A DNA stretch of 64,000 bases. Origin: Aureispira sp. CCB-QB1 (GTDB lineage: Bacteria; Bacteroidota; Bacteroidia; Chitinophagales; Saprospiraceae). Location: assembly GCF_000724545.1 (NCBI RefSeq), contig NZ_JHBV01000022.1, positions 62,001 to 126,000 on the forward strand, written 5' to 3'. How positions within the stretch are numbered: position 1 is the stretch's first letter; each line of letters opens with the position of its first letter. The translations under genes and the position numbers were made by a program. Shown piece after piece: positions 50,390-62,320 of this stretch. The notes beneath the pieces are model-generated. The model was not told the origin of the DNA. It ran no database searches and saw only the letters and a list, made by a program, of their open reading frames with translations.

Positions 50390-50833
50390 GTTTTGTTTGA
50401 ATACTTATCTATTTCTACGTTATTTGCCTTATAACATTACTCCACTGAAACCACGCAGTAGCAGCACAGCTAACTAAAAGCAAAGCGCTCACGCAGTAAA
50501 TCATATTAATTTACCATGTGAGGGCTTCGCCGTTGATCATCAACAAGACGCTCTACTGACTCTTACACTAAAACACTAATAATCAAATTAATGTAAGATG
50601 CTTTTTTATGTTTTTTTTGTAGAAAAAAAAGCAACGAAGTATTATTATAATATCTCTAAGTATTAATATCGTTTTTCATAAAACACGTATATATACTCTA
50701 ATAATACGTTAAATTTATGTTGATCTTTGACCTGTAATCAAACAACAAGTAGCTACTTAACCTCAAATTGATTGCAAAGAGGAACCTGAAAATCTTAGAA
50801 ATAGAGTAAGGATAATCAACCTAAATTTATAAC
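50390..50833. other. 440-bp intergenic region filled mainly by a repeat element
   Basis: Holds the 202-bp repeat element at 50439-50640 and, before the next gene, the motif AATAGAGTAAGGATA (50800-50814), also present before the gene at 55158. Confidence 0.55.
50439..50640. repeat. MITE-like element, longer copy
   Basis: 202 bp with ends ACTCCACTGA (50439-50448) and GCAACGAAGT (50631-50640), partly inverted repeats. It contains the core GAAACCACGCAGTAGCAGC near 50447-50465 and the linked AATCAAATTAATGTAAGATG near 50581-50600, both shared with the copies at 62604-62900 and 63414-63575. Confidence 0.6.
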
Positions 50834-55157: not shown

Positions 55158-55907
55158 ATGGCAAACAAACTACATGAGTTGCTAGCATTAGAACAAGATC
55201 GCAAAAACAAAGGCAACCAAGCTATTGGTGAGACTAAAAAGCTATTTGAAAAAAAAGCACCTCATTTTGATGGAATGACCAAGCGTTATATTCCAATGGA
55301 AGAAAACTCTGAGCAAATTCCTGACGAGCGCAAAGAAATTGTCACAACGGTTAAAACCAGCTTAGAAGAGGCTATTGAAATTATCTCCAAAGGAATTGAT
55401 GCCCACCTATCTAAAGAAGAAACCAATGCTTCTGGAGTTGCTCAAGCTGAATTGATCGTTGGAGATACAAAATTTGGTTCTTTCTCTGCAACTTCATTGT
55501 TAGCACTAGAAAGTCATTTGAATAAACTAAAAGACCTATATACTCAAATTCCAGTATTAGAAACTACTAAAAAATGGCATTTGGATACACAACAGGGTAT
55601 TTATAAAACAGAAGAAGAGGTCAAATTTCGTTCTGTCAAACGCCCTAAAGTAATTGTAAAATACGAAGCTACTAAGGAACACCCTGCACAAACAGAATTG
55701 TTGTATTTAGATTTTCAGGTGGGTAAATACGAAACCATTTATACTTCTGGACGTATTCCTTTAGCGCAAAAAAATGAAATGGTTCAACGTGTGAATCAAC
55801 TTCTAGAAGCAACTAAAGTCGCTCGTTCTAAAGCCAATAATGTTGATGTCAAAAATATTAAGTTGGCTAAAAAAGTATTTAATTTTATCCATAAAGATAT
55901 TTTATAA
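55158..55907 (+). CDS. Unrecognised protein encoded upstream of a tRNA-like RNA cluster
   Basis: A protein of 249 residues, no signal peptide or membrane segment, Lys/Glu-rich (cytoplasmic). Residues 1-130 are mostly helical (HELLALEQDRKNKGNQ, ALESHLNKLKDLYTQIP). Residues ~135-215 look beta-rich (KWHLDTQQGIYKTEEE, PKVIVKYEATKEHPAQTELLYLDFQVGKYETI). The end is helical and basic (VAQRVNQLLEATK-like, NIKLAKKVFNFIHKD). No family identified. No terminator lies between its stop and the RNA elements at 55908-56349, and the first strong terminator is at 56351-56389. So protein and RNA probably share a transcript. The basic helices would suit RNA binding (inference). Confidence 0.7.
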   Translation: MANKLHELLALEQDRKNKGNQAIGETKKLFEKKAPHFDGMTKRYIPMEENSEQIPDERKEIVTTVKTSLEEAIEIISKGIDAHLSKEETNASGVAQAELIVGDTKFGSFSATSLLALESHLNKLKDLYTQIPVLETTKKWHLDTQQGIYKTEEEVKFRSVKRPKVIVKYEATKEHPAQTELLYLDFQVGKYETIYTSGRIPLAQKNEMVQRVNQLLEATKVARSKANNVDVKNIKLAKKVFNFIHKDIL

Positions 55908-55914
55908 TCAAGGC

Positions 55915-56024
55915 AATGACCGCTGCTTTGCGGCGTAGCAATAACAGAGCTAGTCTTAGCATTAGATGAATTGTTATTACCATCGAACTCATGTGACTCC
56001 AATAAATGTTGTCCATGATTCGGG
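55915..56024 (+). ncRNA. Structured leader segment of the tRNA-like locus
   Basis: Three hairpins in 110 nt directly after the protein stop: CCGC/GCGG near 55920-55934, AATAACA/TGTTATT (near 55940 and 55972) enclosing GCTA/TAGC, and TGACTCC/GGAGTCA (near 55994 and 56014). These make a non-coding, structured transcript likely. Whether they belong to the same RNA as the tRNA-like part is inferred from the absence of a terminator. Confidence 0.4.
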
Positions 56025-56071
56025 GAGTCAGTTTTAGTCTTTCGCTCTGCAGCTTTATAGTTTAAAACTTT

Positions 56072-56256
56072 CTTTAGAAAATTATATTTCCTCAAAGCCT
56101 AGTGCACAAGTTCGATTCTTGTCTGCTCCACGATTACGAATATGTATATTGTTTTTTAATATACAATTCAGCTTTGAAAAAATTTTACTCAATTGGAGCG
56201 GTAGCTCAGTGGCAGAGCAAGGGTTTCTGTTCATAAAGGAAAATAATATTCTTAAG
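56072..56256 (+). ncRNA. Circularly permuted (inside-out) tRNA-like RNA, anticodon GUU
   Basis: The 3' half comes first: anticodon-stem strand 56095-56100, 5-nt variable loop, T-arm 56106-56122 (ACAAG-TTCGATT-CTTGT), acceptor strand CTGCTCC 56123-56129, discriminator A56130. After a 64-nt spacer with its own hairpin (56144-56164) comes the 5' half: acceptor GGAGCGG 56195-56201, TA, D-arm GCTC-AGTGGCA-GAGC 56204-56218, then GGGTTT 56221-56226 and loop CTGTTCA 56227-56233. Acceptor strands pair 7/7 (one G-U). Anticodon strands pair 6/6 (two G-U). Leader 56072-56091 and trailer 56238-56256 pair over 17 bp with one bulge and two mismatches. All helices nest. The joined loop would show anticodon GTT (Asn). 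Confidence 0.7.
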
Positions 56257-56268
56257 AATTTTAGGTTC

Positions 56269-56349
56269 GCTCTTGTGGCCAAATTGGTAAAGGCGTTTGT
56301 CTGAAGAACAAATTAGAAATAAATGCAGGTTCGAGTCCTGCCTAGAGCA
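56269..56349 (+). tRNA. tRNA-Phe(GAA)-like gene with 12-nt variable region
   Basis: 81 nt. Acceptor GCTCTTG pairs with CTAGAGC at 6 of 7 positions (T-T mismatch at pair 6), discriminator A. D-arm GCC-AAATTGGTAAA-GGC. Anticodon arm TTTGT-CTGAAGA-ACAAA with U33 and anticodon GAA. Variable region of 12 nt, T-arm GCAGG-TTCGAGT-CCTGC. It fits a tRNA fold but does not resemble the usual housekeeping tRNA-Phe; atypical arms and the mismatch suggest an orphan or specialised tRNA. It starts 12 nt after the trailer helix of the permuted element and touches the terminator. Confidence 0.65.
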
Positions 56350-56350
56350 T

Positions 56351-56389
56351 GGCAGTCGCAAGGTAAGAGCGGCTGCCACCTTTTTTTTT
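56351..56389 (+). terminator. Strong intrinsic terminator of the tRNA-like locus
   Basis: GGCAGTCGC (56351-56359) pairs with GCGGCTGCC (56369-56377) over 9 bp, 9-nt loop, then ACC and nine Ts. It begins 1 nt after the tRNA-Phe-like element and is the first clear terminator after the protein gene at 55158. Confidence 0.85.
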
Positions 56390-56872
56390 GGAAAGGTTCT
56401 TGCTACTAATATTCATATGCAAATACCCCCTCCGTGAAATGGTACACCATTTTATATTTTTGTTTACTTAATGGAAGTAAATGACAGCAAAAGAGTCAAA
56501 CCATACAAACAGTTATCACAAGACAAGCGTTTATAACAGATTATAAAAGGATGTGAATGCAGCGTTAAGTCCTATGCGCTCAGAAATAAACACTACCACA
56601 TTATACAAAAATCAACCAGTAGCTCTCGCTTATCTATCAACAATTGGTAATAGACTTATTAAAGCCACATTTACAATTTAAACCACCCTACTTACGTTAG
56701 GTGCGTAGTCTTTTTTGTTTTGTCAGAACAAAATAGTATATTAGGGTTGTGTAAACATTTGACTTTTAGTGTACCCCACTTATTTTATTGTATATAGTCC
56801 CTAAATAGAAATTATATTCTCCTGTACAGTTCTTTATTAAAGACACTGTATTAATTCTATGCGTAGTACATT
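56390..56872. other. ~480-bp intergenic region with a transposase relic
   Basis: Besides the IS30-like relic (56471-56647), it holds a small dyad AAATGGT-AC-ACCATTT near 56437-56452. No other gene or repeat recognised. Confidence 0.4.
56471..56647 (+). pseudogene. Possible decayed IS30-type transposase N-terminus
   Basis: From ATG 56471 the frame reads PYKQLSQDKRL, a stop, then QIIKGCECS...HIIQKSTSSSRLS. This resembles the IS30-family start 'Y..LS...R..I......S...I......STISREL'. The frame is broken and no catalytic domain or inverted repeats remain. Confidence 0.35.
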
Positions 56873-58988: not shown

Positions 58989-60470
58989 ATGAGATTTCCC
59001 CTAGTAATAATATGGTGTGTTGCTTTCAGCCACAGTCTATTCGGACAAGCACGTTCTTTATTAAATTCGGATTTTGAAACACCTGTCATTGGTACCGCCA
59101 ACAGTTTCTTTCTTTTTCAGGACTCATTGGTAGATGGTTGGAGCACAACCGCTAGTTCTAACTTAATAGAGTTTTGGCGAAATGCTCACAATGGGGTTAC
59201 TGCTGCAAGTGGTCAACAGCACATCGAAATGAATGCAACCGAGCCCGCAGATTTGTATTTCGATGTTTGTATGTTTGATAATGAATCCCTAAACTGGTCT
59301 TTTTATCATAGGGGAAGGTCAGGAATAGACAGTGCCCGTTTATTAATTGGTCCGCCCAATGCCGAGGTAGAAATCATCCGATTTGGAACCAACAATACGA
59401 GCTGGATACAATATGCAGGTAGTTATACCAATACACATGGAAACGCTAGCATTCGTTTTAAGCTTCAACCTCTTCATACTGCTTCTAATAACTTGACAAT
59501 AGGAAATTTTATTGACAAAGTAGAAGTTACGGGATTGGCTCCTCTAGTAGAGTTTGAGCAAATTCAATATAACGATACCGAAAATAGCGGTGGCAATATC
59601 CCAAAACTTCTGGTCAATGGTGCCATACCATCTGGGGGCTTATCTATTGATTTGGTGATAACAGGAGGAAATGCACAATTGGGTTTGGATTATAATCATA
59701 CACAACGGTTTATAATCCCCGAAGGTATTTACGATGGGACATCCAACACAGCTCTTAGTATTCAAAGTAATTTGAGTATCAGTGATGATAACCTAAACGA
59801 ACCTGATGAAACTATCGAAATTTCGCTTGCCAATCCACAAGGGAACTTGCTAATTAACGATGCTAACTGCAATGGGCAAATTAATCGCGTAACGACTTAT
59901 ACCATTCTTGATGATGATGCTACCTTGCCAATAGAACTTTCTTCTTTTGAAGCGTCAAGCGACTGCCAACAAACGCTATTACAATGGAGTACTACGTCTG
60001 AACTAAACAATAACTATTTTAAAATAGAACATAGTCTGGATGGAAGCAGCTGGGCAACAATAGGCAAAATACTTGGTCAAGGGAATAGCACCCAAACTCA
60101 ATATTATCAATATATGCATTCGCAAGTATTTAGTCAAAGTTACTATAGACTTACTCAAATTGATTTTGATGGAAGTTTTAGCCATTCTCCCATTGTTTCA
60201 AGAGCTGCTCCTAATTGTAACTTAAATACCAATATAGCCCTTTATCCTAATCCTGTTATAAAACAAAATATGGTACATCTAGCCATCAACACGGCATCAA
60301 TAAGTCCTTTACAAGTAAAAGTAATTGATGTTTGTGGGCGAACATTATTTAAAGAAAAAGTAGACTCCCATCACCATCTACTTAGTACCCAAAACTTGCC
60401 TTCGGGAGTTTATCAAGTTGTTATTGAAACTACCAATAGTCATTTTATCCGTCGATTAATCATTCAATAG
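58989..60470 (+). CDS. Secreted Calx-beta protein with T9SS sorting domain (copy 1)
   Basis: A protein of 493 residues. Signal peptide ends at SLFGQ. Residues ~20-185 form a jelly-roll-like N-terminal domain (LLNSDFETP, LVDGWSTTASSNLIEFWR, QQHIEMNATEPADLY). Residues ~190-310 are a Calx-beta-like domain (NLSISDDNLNEPDETIEISLANPQG). An FN3-like module follows (LPIELSSFEAS...LLQWSTTSELNNNYFKIEHS...YYRLTQIDFDGSF), then a type A sorting domain (ALYPNPV...VCGRTLF...SGVYQVVIE...RRLIIQ). Exported to the surface; probably adhesive. Tandem paralogue of 60842-62320. Confidence 0.82.
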   Translation: MRFPLVIIWCVAFSHSLFGQARSLLNSDFETPVIGTANSFFLFQDSLVDGWSTTASSNLIEFWRNAHNGVTAASGQQHIEMNATEPADLYFDVCMFDNESLNWSFYHRGRSGIDSARLLIGPPNAEVEIIRFGTNNTSWIQYAGSYTNTHGNASIRFKLQPLHTASNNLTIGNFIDKVEVTGLAPLVEFEQIQYNDTENSGGNIPKLLVNGAIPSGGLSIDLVITGGNAQLGLDYNHTQRFIIPEGIYDGTSNTALSIQSNLSISDDNLNEPDETIEISLANPQGNLLINDANCNGQINRVTTYTILDDDATLPIELSSFEASSDCQQTLLQWSTTSELNNNYFKIEHSLDGSSWATIGKILGQGNSTQTQYYQYMHSQVFSQSYYRLTQIDFDGSFSHSPIVSRAAPNCNLNTNIALYPNPVIKQNMVHLAINTASISPLQVKVIDVCGRTLFKEKVDSHHHLLSTQNLPSGVYQVVIETTNSHFIRRLIIQ

Positions 60471-60841: not shown

Positions 60842-62320
60842 ATGAAAGTTCTAATCGTCTCGTTATTAGTCTGCTGCATGCCCCTAACCATGTTCAGCCA
60901 GGCTCGTGTTATTCTAAATTCTGATTTTGAAACACCCACCAATCCCCCCAATTCCTTTAGATTCTACCATCATTCCCTAGTAGATGGTTGGAGCAGTACT
61001 TCTAGTTCTGGGTTGATGGAATTTTGGAGAAGTCCTTTTAATGGGGTAACCTCTGCTAGTGGTCAGCAACACATCGAATTAAATGCAACACAACCTTCGG
61101 ATTTGTATGTTGAAATTTGTATGTTCAACAATGAATCTTTTACATGGTCATTTTACCATCGAGGTCGTTCTGGCTTAGATAGTGCTCGTTTGTTAATTGG
61201 TCCTCCTGGTGCTGAAGTCCAAATACTTCGTTTTGGAACAGGAAATACGAATTGGGTCCAATACACTGGAAATTATACCAATACACATGGTAACACTCTA
61301 ATTAGAATCCTCTTGCAGCCCATTAGTACGGCTTCAGGAAATCAAACTGTTGGCAACTTTATAGATTTGGTAGAAATTACAGGACTAGCTCCTGTCGTAG
61401 AATTTGAAAAAAATGCTTATAGTGACACAGAAGCTAGCGGTGGCAATATTCCTAATTTGATTGTAAATGGTCGTGTTCCATCTGGTGGTTTGGGTGTCGA
61501 TTTGAATATAACCGGTGGTTCTGCATCTTCGTCTAATGACTTCAACCATACCACTACGTTTATCATTCCTGAAGGAAATTATGATGGTTCTCCTAGTTCG
61601 GTGGTAAGTATTGCGCCCAATTTTAGCGTCAACGACGATTTTATAGATGAACCAGACGAAGATGTCGTTCTTACACTTGCTAATCCGCAAGGAGGATTAA
61701 TCATTAGTGATGCCAACTGTGATGCACAAGCCAATCGTTCTACAAGGTATACTATTCTAGATGAAGACATTACGTTCCCTATCGAACTTTCATCTTTTAC
61801 AGCATTTAGTGATTGCGAACAGACGCAGTTGAGTTGGAGTACTGCAATGGAACTCAACAACAACTATTTCCAAATAGAGCACAGTGTGGATGGAATCAAC
61901 TGGACTAAAATTGGTCAAGTTCCTAGTAGAGGCAACAGTACAGAAACACAACATTATGATTTTCTTTTCAAGGAAATATTTGTCCAGAACTATTTTAGGC
62001 TTCGACAAGTAGATTTTGATGGGAGTTTTAGTTACTCTCCCATTGTTACAACTAAACTTACTGATTGTAATTTAGATGCCAATATCTTGGTCTACCCCAA
62101 TCCTGTTCACCACTCTAATACAGTCAGTGTTAAAGTAAACACATTGATAAAAGAGCCCTTACAACTAAGAATTATTGATATGTGTGGGCGGCTTTTGATG
62201 GAAGAACAAGTGCATCAAAATAGACATGATCTTAATATTGAGCACTTATCACCAGGAGTTTATCAGGTGTTGGTGGAGACAGCAAATACACATTTTGTTC
62301 GTCGATTAATCATTCAATAA
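60842..62320 (+). CDS. Secreted Calx-beta protein with T9SS sorting domain (copy 2)
   Basis: A protein of 492 residues, same domain plan and length as copy 1: signal peptide to FSQ, jelly-roll-like N-terminus (ILNSDFETP, LVDGWSSTSSSGLMEFWR), Calx-beta-like domain (VNDDFIDEPDEDVVLTLANPQGG), FN3-like module (LSSFTAFSDCEQTQLSWSTAMELNNNYFQIEHS) and sorting domain (LVYPNPV...MCGRLLM...PGVYQVLVE...RRLIIQ). Much of the sequence is the same as copy 1, with greatest drift in the loops. It ends at a strong terminator. Confidence 0.82.
   Translation: MKVLIVSLLVCCMPLTMFSQARVILNSDFETPTNPPNSFRFYHHSLVDGWSSTSSSGLMEFWRSPFNGVTSASGQQHIELNATQPSDLYVEICMFNNESFTWSFYHRGRSGLDSARLLIGPPGAEVQILRFGTGNTNWVQYTGNYTNTHGNTLIRILLQPISTASGNQTVGNFIDLVEITGLAPVVEFEKNAYSDTEASGGNIPNLIVNGRVPSGGLGVDLNITGGSASSSNDFNHTTTFIIPEGNYDGSPSSVVSIAPNFSVNDDFIDEPDEDVVLTLANPQGGLIISDANCDAQANRSTRYTILDEDITFPIELSSFTAFSDCEQTQLSWSTAMELNNNYFQIEHSVDGINWTKIGQVPSRGNSTETQHYDFLFKEIFVQNYFRLRQVDFDGSFSYSPIVTTKLTDCNLDANILVYPNPVHHSNTVSVKVNTLIKEPLQLRIIDMCGRLLMEEQVHQNRHDLNIEHLSPGVYQVLVETANTHFVRRLIIQ

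What the first reader, a model, noticed from the sequence alone, without database searches (positions are those of the whole stretch)
56072..56256. Circularly permuted, inside-out tRNA with paired leader and trailer
A T-arm and acceptor 3' strand (56106-56130) precede an acceptor 5' strand and D-arm (56195-56218). The acceptor strands pair 7/7 across the 64-nt spacer. The anticodon-stem strands (56221-56226 with 56095-56100) pair 6/6. The outer leader and trailer pair over 17 bp. All helices nest without a pseudoknot, so the order of halves is structurally coherent and not just two broken tRNAs. Permuted tRNA genes are known from red/green algae and some archaea, where they are matured through a splicing endonuclease and ligase; in bacteria a comparable case is two-piece tmRNA. 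Natural ends would lie in the anticodon loop, so cleavage at the acceptor side would give a tRNA already broken at the anticodon: a possible decoy, repair substrate or sensor for tRNA damage (inference).
Basis: partly seen in the sequence, partly recalled or inferred. Interest (0 to 1): 0.9.

Follow-up and report, generated by a model that had tools for sequence, protein, structure and literature searches.

The report
Phage-type RNA built from inside-out tRNA
The inside-out tRNA is real: it is one part of a larger, apparently undescribed RNA that travels with an unknown protein in bacteria and phages and, judging from matched sequence changes, pairs with itself through a codon-anticodon contact and a tRNA-end contact.

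Summary
The permuted tRNA at 56095-56226 is real and unlikely by chance, but it is one domain of a larger RNA. That RNA directly follows a DUF7873 gene (55158-55907) and continues with a normal-order tRNA (56269-56349) and a 10-bp, U-tailed hairpin (56350-56378). Permuted tRNAs follow DUF7873 in other Bacteroidota, actinobacterial replicons and phages: 146 of 160 IMG/VR loci.

Comparison adds two pairings. (1) The hairpin loop GGN complements the permuted tRNA's discriminator base: 28 of 31 Bacteroidota loci, the other 3 unparsed; 97 of 111 scored IMG/VR loci, wobble included, 17 more unscored. (2) In Bacteroidota, three bases at a fixed place in the opened anticodon loop are the codon complementary to the next tRNA's anticodon: 23 of 27 loci, 19 of 22 clusters; in the window UUC and GAA. 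Phage copies lack this codon rule.

An algal-type spliced tRNA gene is unlikely: U33 is not kept and the host has no splicing endonuclease. Most likely it is a T-box-like two-tRNA clamp working with DUF7873; its role is inferred. No Rfam family or paper found describes it.

The parts
55158..55907 (+). DUF7873 protein gene (249 aa), directly upstream of the RNA; proposed protein partner
   Evidence: Pfam PF25283, 4.5e-79; the RNA follows it in other Bacteroidota, actinobacterial replicons and phages
55945..56049 (+). 5' domain closed by P1 CAGAG (55945-55949) / CUCUG (56045-56049), with inner CUAG and UUUCG (56040-56044)
   Evidence: P1 differs on both sides between loci (CAGAG/CUCUG, UGGAG/CUCCA, AGAAG/CUUCU, CGGAA/UUCCG) beside similar inner motifs. 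Supportive only: pairs were chosen by complementarity and 4 of 31 picks (L074, L078, L084, L088) look wrong
56069..56093 (+). leader strand of the leader/trailer helix
56095..56100 (+). anticodon-stem 3' strand of the permuted tRNA
   Evidence: the anticodon stem is recovered by an offset-free scan in phage copies
56106..56122 (+). T-arm of the permuted tRNA
56123..56130 (+). acceptor 3' strand and discriminator A73 (56130)
   Evidence: A73 is complementary to U of the GGU loop
56131..56194 (+). spacer joining the two acceptor strands; variable in length and sequence between relatives
56195..56201 (+). acceptor 5' strand
56204..56218 (+). D-arm
56221..56226 (+). anticodon-stem 5' strand (overlaps the first two codon bases)
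56225..56227 (+). specifier-like codon UUC (positions 7-9 after the D-stem)
   Evidence: complementary to anticodon GAA of the next tRNA; 23 of 27 Bacteroidota loci follow the rule
56235..56258 (+). trailer strand of the leader/trailer helix
56269..56349 (+). normal-order tRNA, anticodon GAA at 56303-56305, long variable region; the genome has another tRNA-Phe(GAA)
   Evidence: other tRNA-Phe
56350..56378 (+). 10-bp hairpin directly after the tRNA; loop AAGGUAAGA, GGU at 56362-56364
   Evidence: stem 9-11 bp in 28 of 31 Bacteroidota loci (3 unparsed), 0-4 nt after the tRNA; GGN complements the permuted tRNA's N73 in those 28
56381..56389 (+). U-run: the hairpin also looks like an intrinsic terminator

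Best explanation
The locus encodes a structured RNA of about 450 nt that works with the DUF7873 protein.

Shown by comparison of sequences: one RNA domain is a complete tRNA fold with the gene order turned inside out, so its natural ends lie at the acceptor and its anticodon arm opens into the rest of the RNA. A 3' hairpin loop (GGN) is complementary to that domain's discriminator base, as expected for N73-C74-C75 pairing. In Bacteroidota three bases after the anticodon stem are a codon complementary to the anticodon of the tRNA that follows, and that tRNA's acceptor end abuts the same hairpin.

Inferred: the permuted domain and the second tRNA are held together at both ends, by codon-anticodon pairing and by the hairpin, giving a closed two-tRNA clamp. 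The spacer is probably cut at the tRNA ends by RNase P and 3' processing, leaving a multi-piece RNA as in two-piece tmRNA. That DUF7873 binds the RNA is inferred from linkage alone.

Most likely role, inferred: a mobile, phage-type device that captures, hides or senses a chosen tRNA in phage-host conflict over translation. I give the anatomy and the GGN contact about 0.9, codon-anticodon pairing in Bacteroidota 0.85, and this role about 0.3.
For: Linkage: 15 of 28 full-length Bacteroidota genes (window plus 14 of L027-L053) are followed directly by the permuted tRNA. Of the other 13 genomes, 12 carry a confirmed permuted tRNA elsewhere, 5 of them two. 14 of 15 fetched phage or replicon loci have it within 800 nt of the stop (13 of 14; L069). 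146 of 160 IMG/VR loci have at least one.

Fold: with the acceptor-blind control. A triplet scan over all offsets in 46 two-permuted viral loci recovers the anticodon stem and part of the leader/trailer helix. Own trailers pair best in 11 of 15 loci.

GGN: 28 of 28 parsed Bacteroidota loci, and 15 of 15 against 0 of 15 where the two tRNAs' discriminators differ; 41 of 43 scored loci, permutation mean 14.8, maximum 28 (relatives not collapsed); 97 of 111 in IMG/VR, mean 53.2, maximum 71.

Codon: offset 7 matches in 19 of 22 clusters, other offsets 0 to 3; permutation mean 3.1, maximum 11 in 100,000.

C74 is encoded in 210 of 228 and CCA in 124 of 228 permuted tRNAs.

Parallels: in RNase P, L15 G292-U294 pairs the pre-tRNA 3' end (PMC9433436, passages); the T-box bulge pairs NCCA (PMC7583486, passages).
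Against: There are no RNA data: transcription, cleavage, charging and protein binding are untested. The unconstrained fold of the window copy does not form the acceptor helix.

The codon rule is absent from IMG/VR phage loci followed by a normal tRNA (no offset exceeds 4 of 30) and from the five non-Bacteroidota loci. It fails in 4 of 27 Bacteroidota loci as scripted (L041, L075 second copy, L077, L083). L083 matches if its D-stem is re-read and L075 matches three bases later, both by hand. Four more Bacteroidota loci with 4-nt anticodon calls were not counted.

The own-trailer test fails in L029, L048, L056 and L060; against shuffled trailers 6 of 15 loci (L029, L034, L048, L060, L065, L066) are weak, with 15 to 77 of 200 shuffles as good.

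14 of 160 viral loci gave no permuted tRNA (2 cut by contig ends), nor did L036's genome. GGN: 14 of 111 IMG/VR loci break the rule and 17 of 128 had no such hairpin; in the other set 2 of 43 break it and 8 of 51 were unparsed, one of which (L056) does not fit by eye.

No contact between the two permuted tRNAs of two-permuted phages was found. DUF7873 could not be modelled.
Confidence: 0.6

Rival explanations
1. T-box-like sensor in trans: the codon and a GGN loop capture free cellular tRNAs with the chosen anticodon and report charging or cleavage; the co-encoded tRNA is a resident ligand or reference.
For: A codon in a loop and a loop base covarying with a discriminator base are T-box-like features; two genomes hold copies with different codons (L071/L087 and L073/L088).
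Against: GGN follows the permuted tRNA, not the codon-paired tRNA (15 of 15 against 0 of 15), whereas in T-boxes one tRNA makes both contacts. The RNA lies downstream of its gene or stands alone.
Confidence: 0.25
2. tmRNA-like ribosome-acting RNA: the permuted domain is cut into two pieces, charged, and enters ribosomes with DUF7873 in an SmpB-like role.
For: Same gene order as two-piece tmRNA; encoded CCA in 124 of 228 and C74 in 210 of 228; weak Rfam tmRNA_permuted hit at 56106-56203 (17.4 bits, gathering 47).
Against: The score is far below the family cut-off and the match covers only T-arm and acceptor; a full D-stem is present; the window's pair 3-70 is A-U, not G-U; the GGN loop would occupy the CCA end. 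No tag reading frame was looked for.
Confidence: 0.2
3. Algal or archaeal type permuted tRNA gene: leader and trailer are cut out, the halves are joined, and an ordinary decoding tRNA results.
For: Paired leader and trailer, D- and T-arms kept, RtcB present in the host.
Against: U33 not conserved, variable triplet at 32-34 tied to the next tRNA's anticodon, no splicing endonuclease PF01974 in the genome, an internal loop instead of a 7-nt loop in the constrained folds.
Confidence: 0.06
4. The two tRNA bodies are only structural building blocks of an RNP scaffold or cage, comparable in kind to GOLLD or ROOL, and neither is charged.
For: Anticodon and body look mismatched in several copies: GAA on a long-variable-arm body in the window; CAG, GAG and GCT on short bodies in L073, L074, L078, L083 and L087 (judged by eye). 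The second tRNA abuts the hairpin within 0-4 nt. Phage copies can sit in tRNA arrays, as GOLLD and ROOL do (PMC12286853, passages).
Against: Permuted-tRNA ends keep C74 and often CCA. The Bacteroidota anticodons with 3-nt calls all begin with G or C (27 of 27), which free pairing would not demand, though the sample is small.
Confidence: 0.2
5. Chance alignment of two broken tRNA halves.
For: Relics of tRNA halves can occur in phage tRNA arrays (general knowledge).
Confidence: 0.01

Closest known systems
Circularly permuted tRNA genes of algae and archaea
   Same: 3' half before 5' half, paired leader and trailer, break at the anticodon
   Different: No sign of ligation into a decoding tRNA; in Bacteroidota it carries a codon for the next tRNA; part of a larger RNA with a protein gene
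Permuted (two-piece) tmRNA
   Same: Gene order, acceptor made of two strands split by a spacer, anticodon arm opening into a larger domain
   Different: Full D-arm, no match at the Rfam cut-off, second tRNA and GGN hairpin added
T-box riboswitch
   Same: Codon in a loop for an anticodon; loop base covarying with a discriminator base
   Different: The two contacts fall on two different tRNAs encoded side by side; in the window the RNA lies downstream of its gene; no T-box match
RNase P RNA L15 loop
   Same: GGU pairing to the tRNA 3' end
   Different: Here the third base varies with N73; no RNase P match
GOLLD and ROOL RNAs
   Same: Large structured RNAs of phages near tRNA islands, function unknown
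   Different: Those are described as RNA-only complexes; this one has a linked protein gene and permuted tRNAs; no GOLLD or ROOL match

Membership tests
Circularly permuted tRNA gene (algal/archaeal) | 3' half precedes 5' half and both complete one cloverleaf | tested here: met
Circularly permuted tRNA gene (algal/archaeal) | Joined product is a functional decoding tRNA (U33, own anticodon) | tested here: not met
   T at the place of U33 in 16 of 30 and 62 of 173; triplet tied to the next tRNA in Bacteroidota
Circularly permuted tRNA gene (algal/archaeal) | Host has tRNA splicing endonuclease | tested here: not met
   0 matches to PF01974 in the own genome, 99.21% complete
Circularly permuted tRNA gene (algal/archaeal) | Circular or ligated RNA intermediate | not testable with these tools
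   needs RNA sequencing
Permuted tmRNA | Match to the tmRNA model | tested here: not met
   17.4 bits against a gathering score of 47; nothing at gathering score over this RNA
Permuted tmRNA | Tag peptide reading frame and alanine identity G3-U70 | tested here: inconclusive
   Window pair 3-70 is A-U and acceptors vary; no tag frame was searched for
T-box riboswitch | Specifier codon matching a tRNA anticodon | tested here: met
   23 of 27 Bacteroidota loci; not met in phage copies
T-box riboswitch | Loop or bulge base covarying with the discriminator of that same tRNA | tested here: not met
   GGN follows the permuted tRNA, not the codon-paired one
T-box riboswitch | Rfam T-box match | tested here: not met
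   no match
DUF7873 (PF25283) | Profile match over the curated cut-off | tested here: met
   266 bits against 27
GOLLD/ROOL | Rfam match | tested here: not met
   no match

The most novel reading that the evidence does not exclude
The RNA is a ribosome-independent two-tRNA machine: a codon and a GGN loop hold two tRNA bodies side by side at both anticodon and acceptor ends, much as ribosomal A- and P-sites do, and with DUF7873 it uses charged tRNAs for a reaction or signal outside the ribosome. It is carried by phages and by bacterial chromosomes, in some genomes as two copies with different codons.
Probability: 0.08. Interest if true: 0.98.

Novelty: categorically new. Interest (0 to 1): 0.93.

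Why it matters
No bacterial or phage permuted tRNA turned up in the paper searches (one search was too broad to count), and the review seen in passages (PMC3978253) treats permuted tRNA genes as algal and archaeal. Here they occur in 146 of 160 viral loci examined, tied to one protein family and embedded in an RNA whose parts are linked by codon-anticodon and discriminator complementarity. If the pairings are physical, this is an RNA that uses the code's own recognition rules as an assembly or targeting code, outside an mRNA and outside a T-box. It gives phage tRNA arrays a new component and makes a testable prediction: in the Bacteroidota form, swapping the codon should swap the partner tRNA.

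Tried and rejected
Splicing to a decoding tRNA: disfavoured on U33 and the missing endonuclease. A permuted self-splicing intron at the break: considered because leader and trailer flank the halves; no intron family matched at gathering score in the window or at E up to 10 in 55700-56700. The codon rule in phage copies: tested at offsets from five anchors in 30 loci, nothing above 4. Kissing between the two permuted tRNAs of two-permuted phages: not found in 46 loci. GGN against the second tRNA's discriminator: 13 of 28 in all and 0 of 15 where the two differ. PDB matches for DUF7873: none at E up to 1 (profile of 27 sequences); PHROG: none for 6 proteins; PADLOC: none for 3. The weak NCBIfam ribonuclease HII match (24.1 bits against a cut-off of 243) was not taken as homology. 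Model R1 is not specific: it also matches ordinary tandem tRNAs; hits L092, L094, L095 and L096 are such and were left out by rule. L093 and L098 stayed in the 61 rows but look false; they enter no codon count and were unparsed for GGN.

Full report
WHAT WAS CHECKED. ARAGORN and Rfam see at this place only the normal tRNA at 56269-56349. Positions 56065-56260 fold better than 200 of 200 shuffles (z -3.35), but the unconstrained minimum-energy fold contains the leader/trailer helix and T-arm and not the acceptor helix; in later folds I forced T-arm, acceptor and D-arm. A simple detector (T-arm, acceptor, D-arm in inverted order) finds one hit in the window, against 3 hits in 60 Markov-shuffled windows and 1 hit in 1.68 Mb of mononucleotide-shuffled sequence on one strand.

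RELATIVES. Of 100 genomes (own one included) 9 matched the DNA at E <= 0.001; besides the own genome only two congeners match over the whole region (86% and 83%). They keep both tRNA halves, show compensatory changes in the acceptor and in the leader/trailer helix, and have spacers of 63 and 22 nt against 65 in the detector's count, which includes N73. The gene just upstream is DUF7873 (PF25283). It is patchy: 13 of 198 relatives, own genome and weak or partial matches included, and 1 of 395 genomes drawn from the phylum, namely the own one. Among 14 control genomes it rings only in Deinobacterium chartae.

DISTRIBUTION. A scan of GTDB genomes gave 28 DUF7873 loci, titled as Bacteroidota groups except one titled only 'bacterium'; the scan used two peptide patterns taken from Bacteroidota proteins, so it could not reach distant relatives. 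L054 is a fragment. Of the other 27, 14 have the permuted tRNA right after the stop codon, as the window does; in 13 no permuted tRNA was found anywhere in the fetched locus. A covariance model (R1) matched all 13 of those genomes, but it also matches ordinary tandem tRNAs. Inspection confirmed a permuted tRNA in 12 of the 13 and two copies in 5 of these (L075, L076, L071/L087, L073/L088, L077/L090), two of the pairs being in tandem. DUF7873 is also in 4 of 72,556 plasmid-collection records (Streptomyces and Nonomuraea) and in 52 of 50,697 phage records. I fetched 12 phage and 3 replicon loci: 14 of 15 have a permuted tRNA within 800 nt of the stop (13 of 14; L069 by its coordinates). In the other (Microcoleus phage, L064) a HEARO RNA and an ORF lie between. 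In six of the phages the gene lies inside an annotated tRNA array, yet the permuted tRNA carries no tRNA annotation. Two IMG/VR scans gave 119 and 155 relatives, of which each call kept the best 80 (overlap between the two was not checked). Of these 160 loci, 146 have at least one permuted tRNA within 1500 nt downstream (92 one, 54 two or more); 2 of the 14 misses are cut by contig ends.

ARCHITECTURES. In Bacteroidota, Vibrio phages and two Rhizobium phages the permuted tRNA is followed by a normal-order tRNA. In actinobacterial replicons and phages and in two cyanophages there are two permuted tRNAs in a row, mostly with very short spacers. Rhizobium phage TM40 (L056) has one permuted tRNA and no tRNA called after it within 800 nt, and in IMG/VR only 34 loci have a called tRNA within 110 nt of the permuted one.

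COVARIATION. Over 30 permuted tRNAs, 85.2% of cells pair (58.9% in shuffles), 182 cells change on both sides (61.2 in shuffles), and sliding the partners by 1 to 3 columns drops the score from 0.740 to 0.246 or less; the anticodon stem as aligned is only 41 to 60% paired. Because the loci were found by acceptor pairing, I repeated the test blind to the acceptor: the first T-arm/D-arm pair gives 7/7 in 22 of 28 loci (5 other values, 1 without a pair), while strands from different loci give 7/7 in 8 of 1122 pairings; across all 34 distinct rows, wrong D-arms included, 18 give 7/7. Leader and trailer pair best with their own partner in 11 of 15 loci; L029, L048, L056 and L060 fail, and against shuffled trailers 6 of 15 loci are weak (15 to 77 of 200 shuffles as good). 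A scan for complementary triplets at any pair of offsets in 46 two-permuted viral loci ranks the anticodon stem first (18 loci, 16 different triplets) and finds the helix beyond it in about 10 loci.

THE GGN LOOP. A 3' hairpin ends the RNA, with a U-run in the window. Its loop holds GG followed by a base that complements the discriminator N73 of the last permuted tRNA. In the first set 41 of 43 scored rows match; 8 further last-permuted rows had no parsed loop (permutation mean 14.8, maximum 28; relatives not collapsed). By eye the unparsed L056 does not fit, while L091 and L058 do. In Bacteroidota 28 of 28 parsed loci match, with 3 of 31 unparsed; where the two tRNAs' discriminators differ it is the permuted one in 15 of 15. 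In IMG/VR, 111 of 128 distinct loci could be scored: 78 Watson-Crick, 19 G-U, 14 other (permutation mean 53.2 for pairs of either kind, maximum 71). The hairpin stem is 9 to 11 bp in the 28 parsed loci and starts 0 to 4 nt after the second tRNA. Bacterial RNase P L15 pairs the pre-tRNA 3' end with G292-U294 (PMC9433436, passages seen), and the T-box bulge pairs NCCA (PMC7583486, passages seen).

THE CODON. In Bacteroidota, bases 7-9 after the D-stem of the permuted tRNA are the reverse complement of the next tRNA's anticodon in 23 of 27 loci with a 3-nt anticodon call. Collapsed by similarity of the second tRNA it is 19 of 22 clusters at offset 7, and 0 to 3 at any other offset; permutation mean 3.1, maximum 11 in 100,000. 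Nine combinations occur in the scripted matches (UUC/GAA, GGC/GCC, GGG/CCC, AUG/CAU, GUG/CAC, AGG/CCU, CUG/CAG, CUC/GAG, GAC/GUC), with AGC/GCU in L083 if its D-stem is re-read by hand. L041 and L077 do not match; the second copy in L075 matches three bases later. Four Bacteroidota loci with 4-nt anticodon calls were not counted. The five non-Bacteroidota loci with a following tRNA do not match. In IMG/VR phage loci the rule is absent (30 loci, best offset 4). On present evidence it is a Bacteroidota feature.

HOW IT MAY WORK. From these contacts I infer a closed arrangement: the permuted tRNA's opened anticodon arm shows a codon to the second tRNA, and the second tRNA's acceptor end carries the hairpin that grips the permuted tRNA's 3' end. 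Encoded C74 (210 of 228) and CCA (124 of 228) suggest that this 3' end is exposed or matured (the 228 may include a few false hits). The genome has another tRNA-Phe(GAA), and the region has no second copy in the own genome at E <= 0.001 by DNA. Whether the RNA captures, hides or senses tRNA, or acts on ribosomes, cannot be decided from sequence. Presence in phage tRNA arrays and patchy chromosomal copies favour a role in phage-host conflict over translation (inference).

KNOWN OR NOT. No Rfam 15 family other than tRNA covers the region at gathering score in the window, and none covers the permuted tRNAs in 14 phage and replicon loci. No paper in the library holds 'DUF7873'. Searches on permuted tRNA with bacteria, phage and split tRNA listed no title or abstract on bacterial or phage permuted tRNAs apart from tmRNA; searches on tRNA arrays and phage RNAs and on complementary anticodons listed nothing alike; one search was too broad to be informative. 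I saw listings only, except passages of five papers. The library holds no bioRxiv preprints and few subscription papers, so priority cannot be asserted. The 2014 review (PMC3978253, passages) names tmRNA as the bacterial permuted case and algae and archaea for tRNA; the passages of PMC10085705 list known permuted RNAs and show nothing like this; PMC12286853 (passages) describes GOLLD and ROOL near tRNA islands.

LIMITS. All support is comparative. DUF7873 could not be modelled. Most loci are metagenome assemblies. Related loci are not independent; clusters and permutations reduce but do not remove this.

Noticed in passing
L072, L075, L076 (second tRNA): ARAGORN reads a 4-nt anticodon (TTCC, 8-nt loop); the permuted tRNA beside it carries TGGA against TCCA in the loop, which looks like a four-base version of the codon contact.
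   Followed up: partly
window 56269-56349; L073, L074, L078, L083, L087: Second tRNAs have anticodons that, by eye, do not suit their bodies (GAA on a long-variable-arm body; Leu and Ser anticodons on short-arm bodies).
   Followed up: partly
L064 3363-4874: A HEARO RNA (Rfam RF02033) and an ORF lie between DUF7873 and the permuted tRNA in Microcoleus phage My-WqHQDG, looking like an inserted mobile element.
   Followed up: no
L024, 1751 on the minus strand: A distant DUF7873-like protein (26% identity) has a permuted tRNA hit near it too, so the family may be wider than the matches counted here.
   Followed up: no
phage second tRNAs L109, L116, L177, L227 and others: Normal-order tRNAs after phage permuted tRNAs have odd anticodons, among them TAA, TCA and TTA and several with A34.
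   Followed up: partly
L057 1063-1591: Gordonia phage Phendrix has an Rfam tmRNA match (89 bits) in the same tRNA array, apart from the permuted tRNAs.
   Followed up: no
window 50776-50812: Rfam DUF805b motif hit (41.8 bits) upstream of a 242-aa ORF.
   Followed up: no
window 58989-60470 and 60842-62320: Two neighbouring proteins of 493 and 492 aa look alike by eye, perhaps a tandem duplication.
   Followed up: no
leader strands of phage copies, e.g. L059 after 3726: Repeated CUGA on the first strand and UCAG on the second suggest, by eye, a helix of 4-bp blocks with a six-base period, a possible DUF7873 binding site.
   Followed up: no
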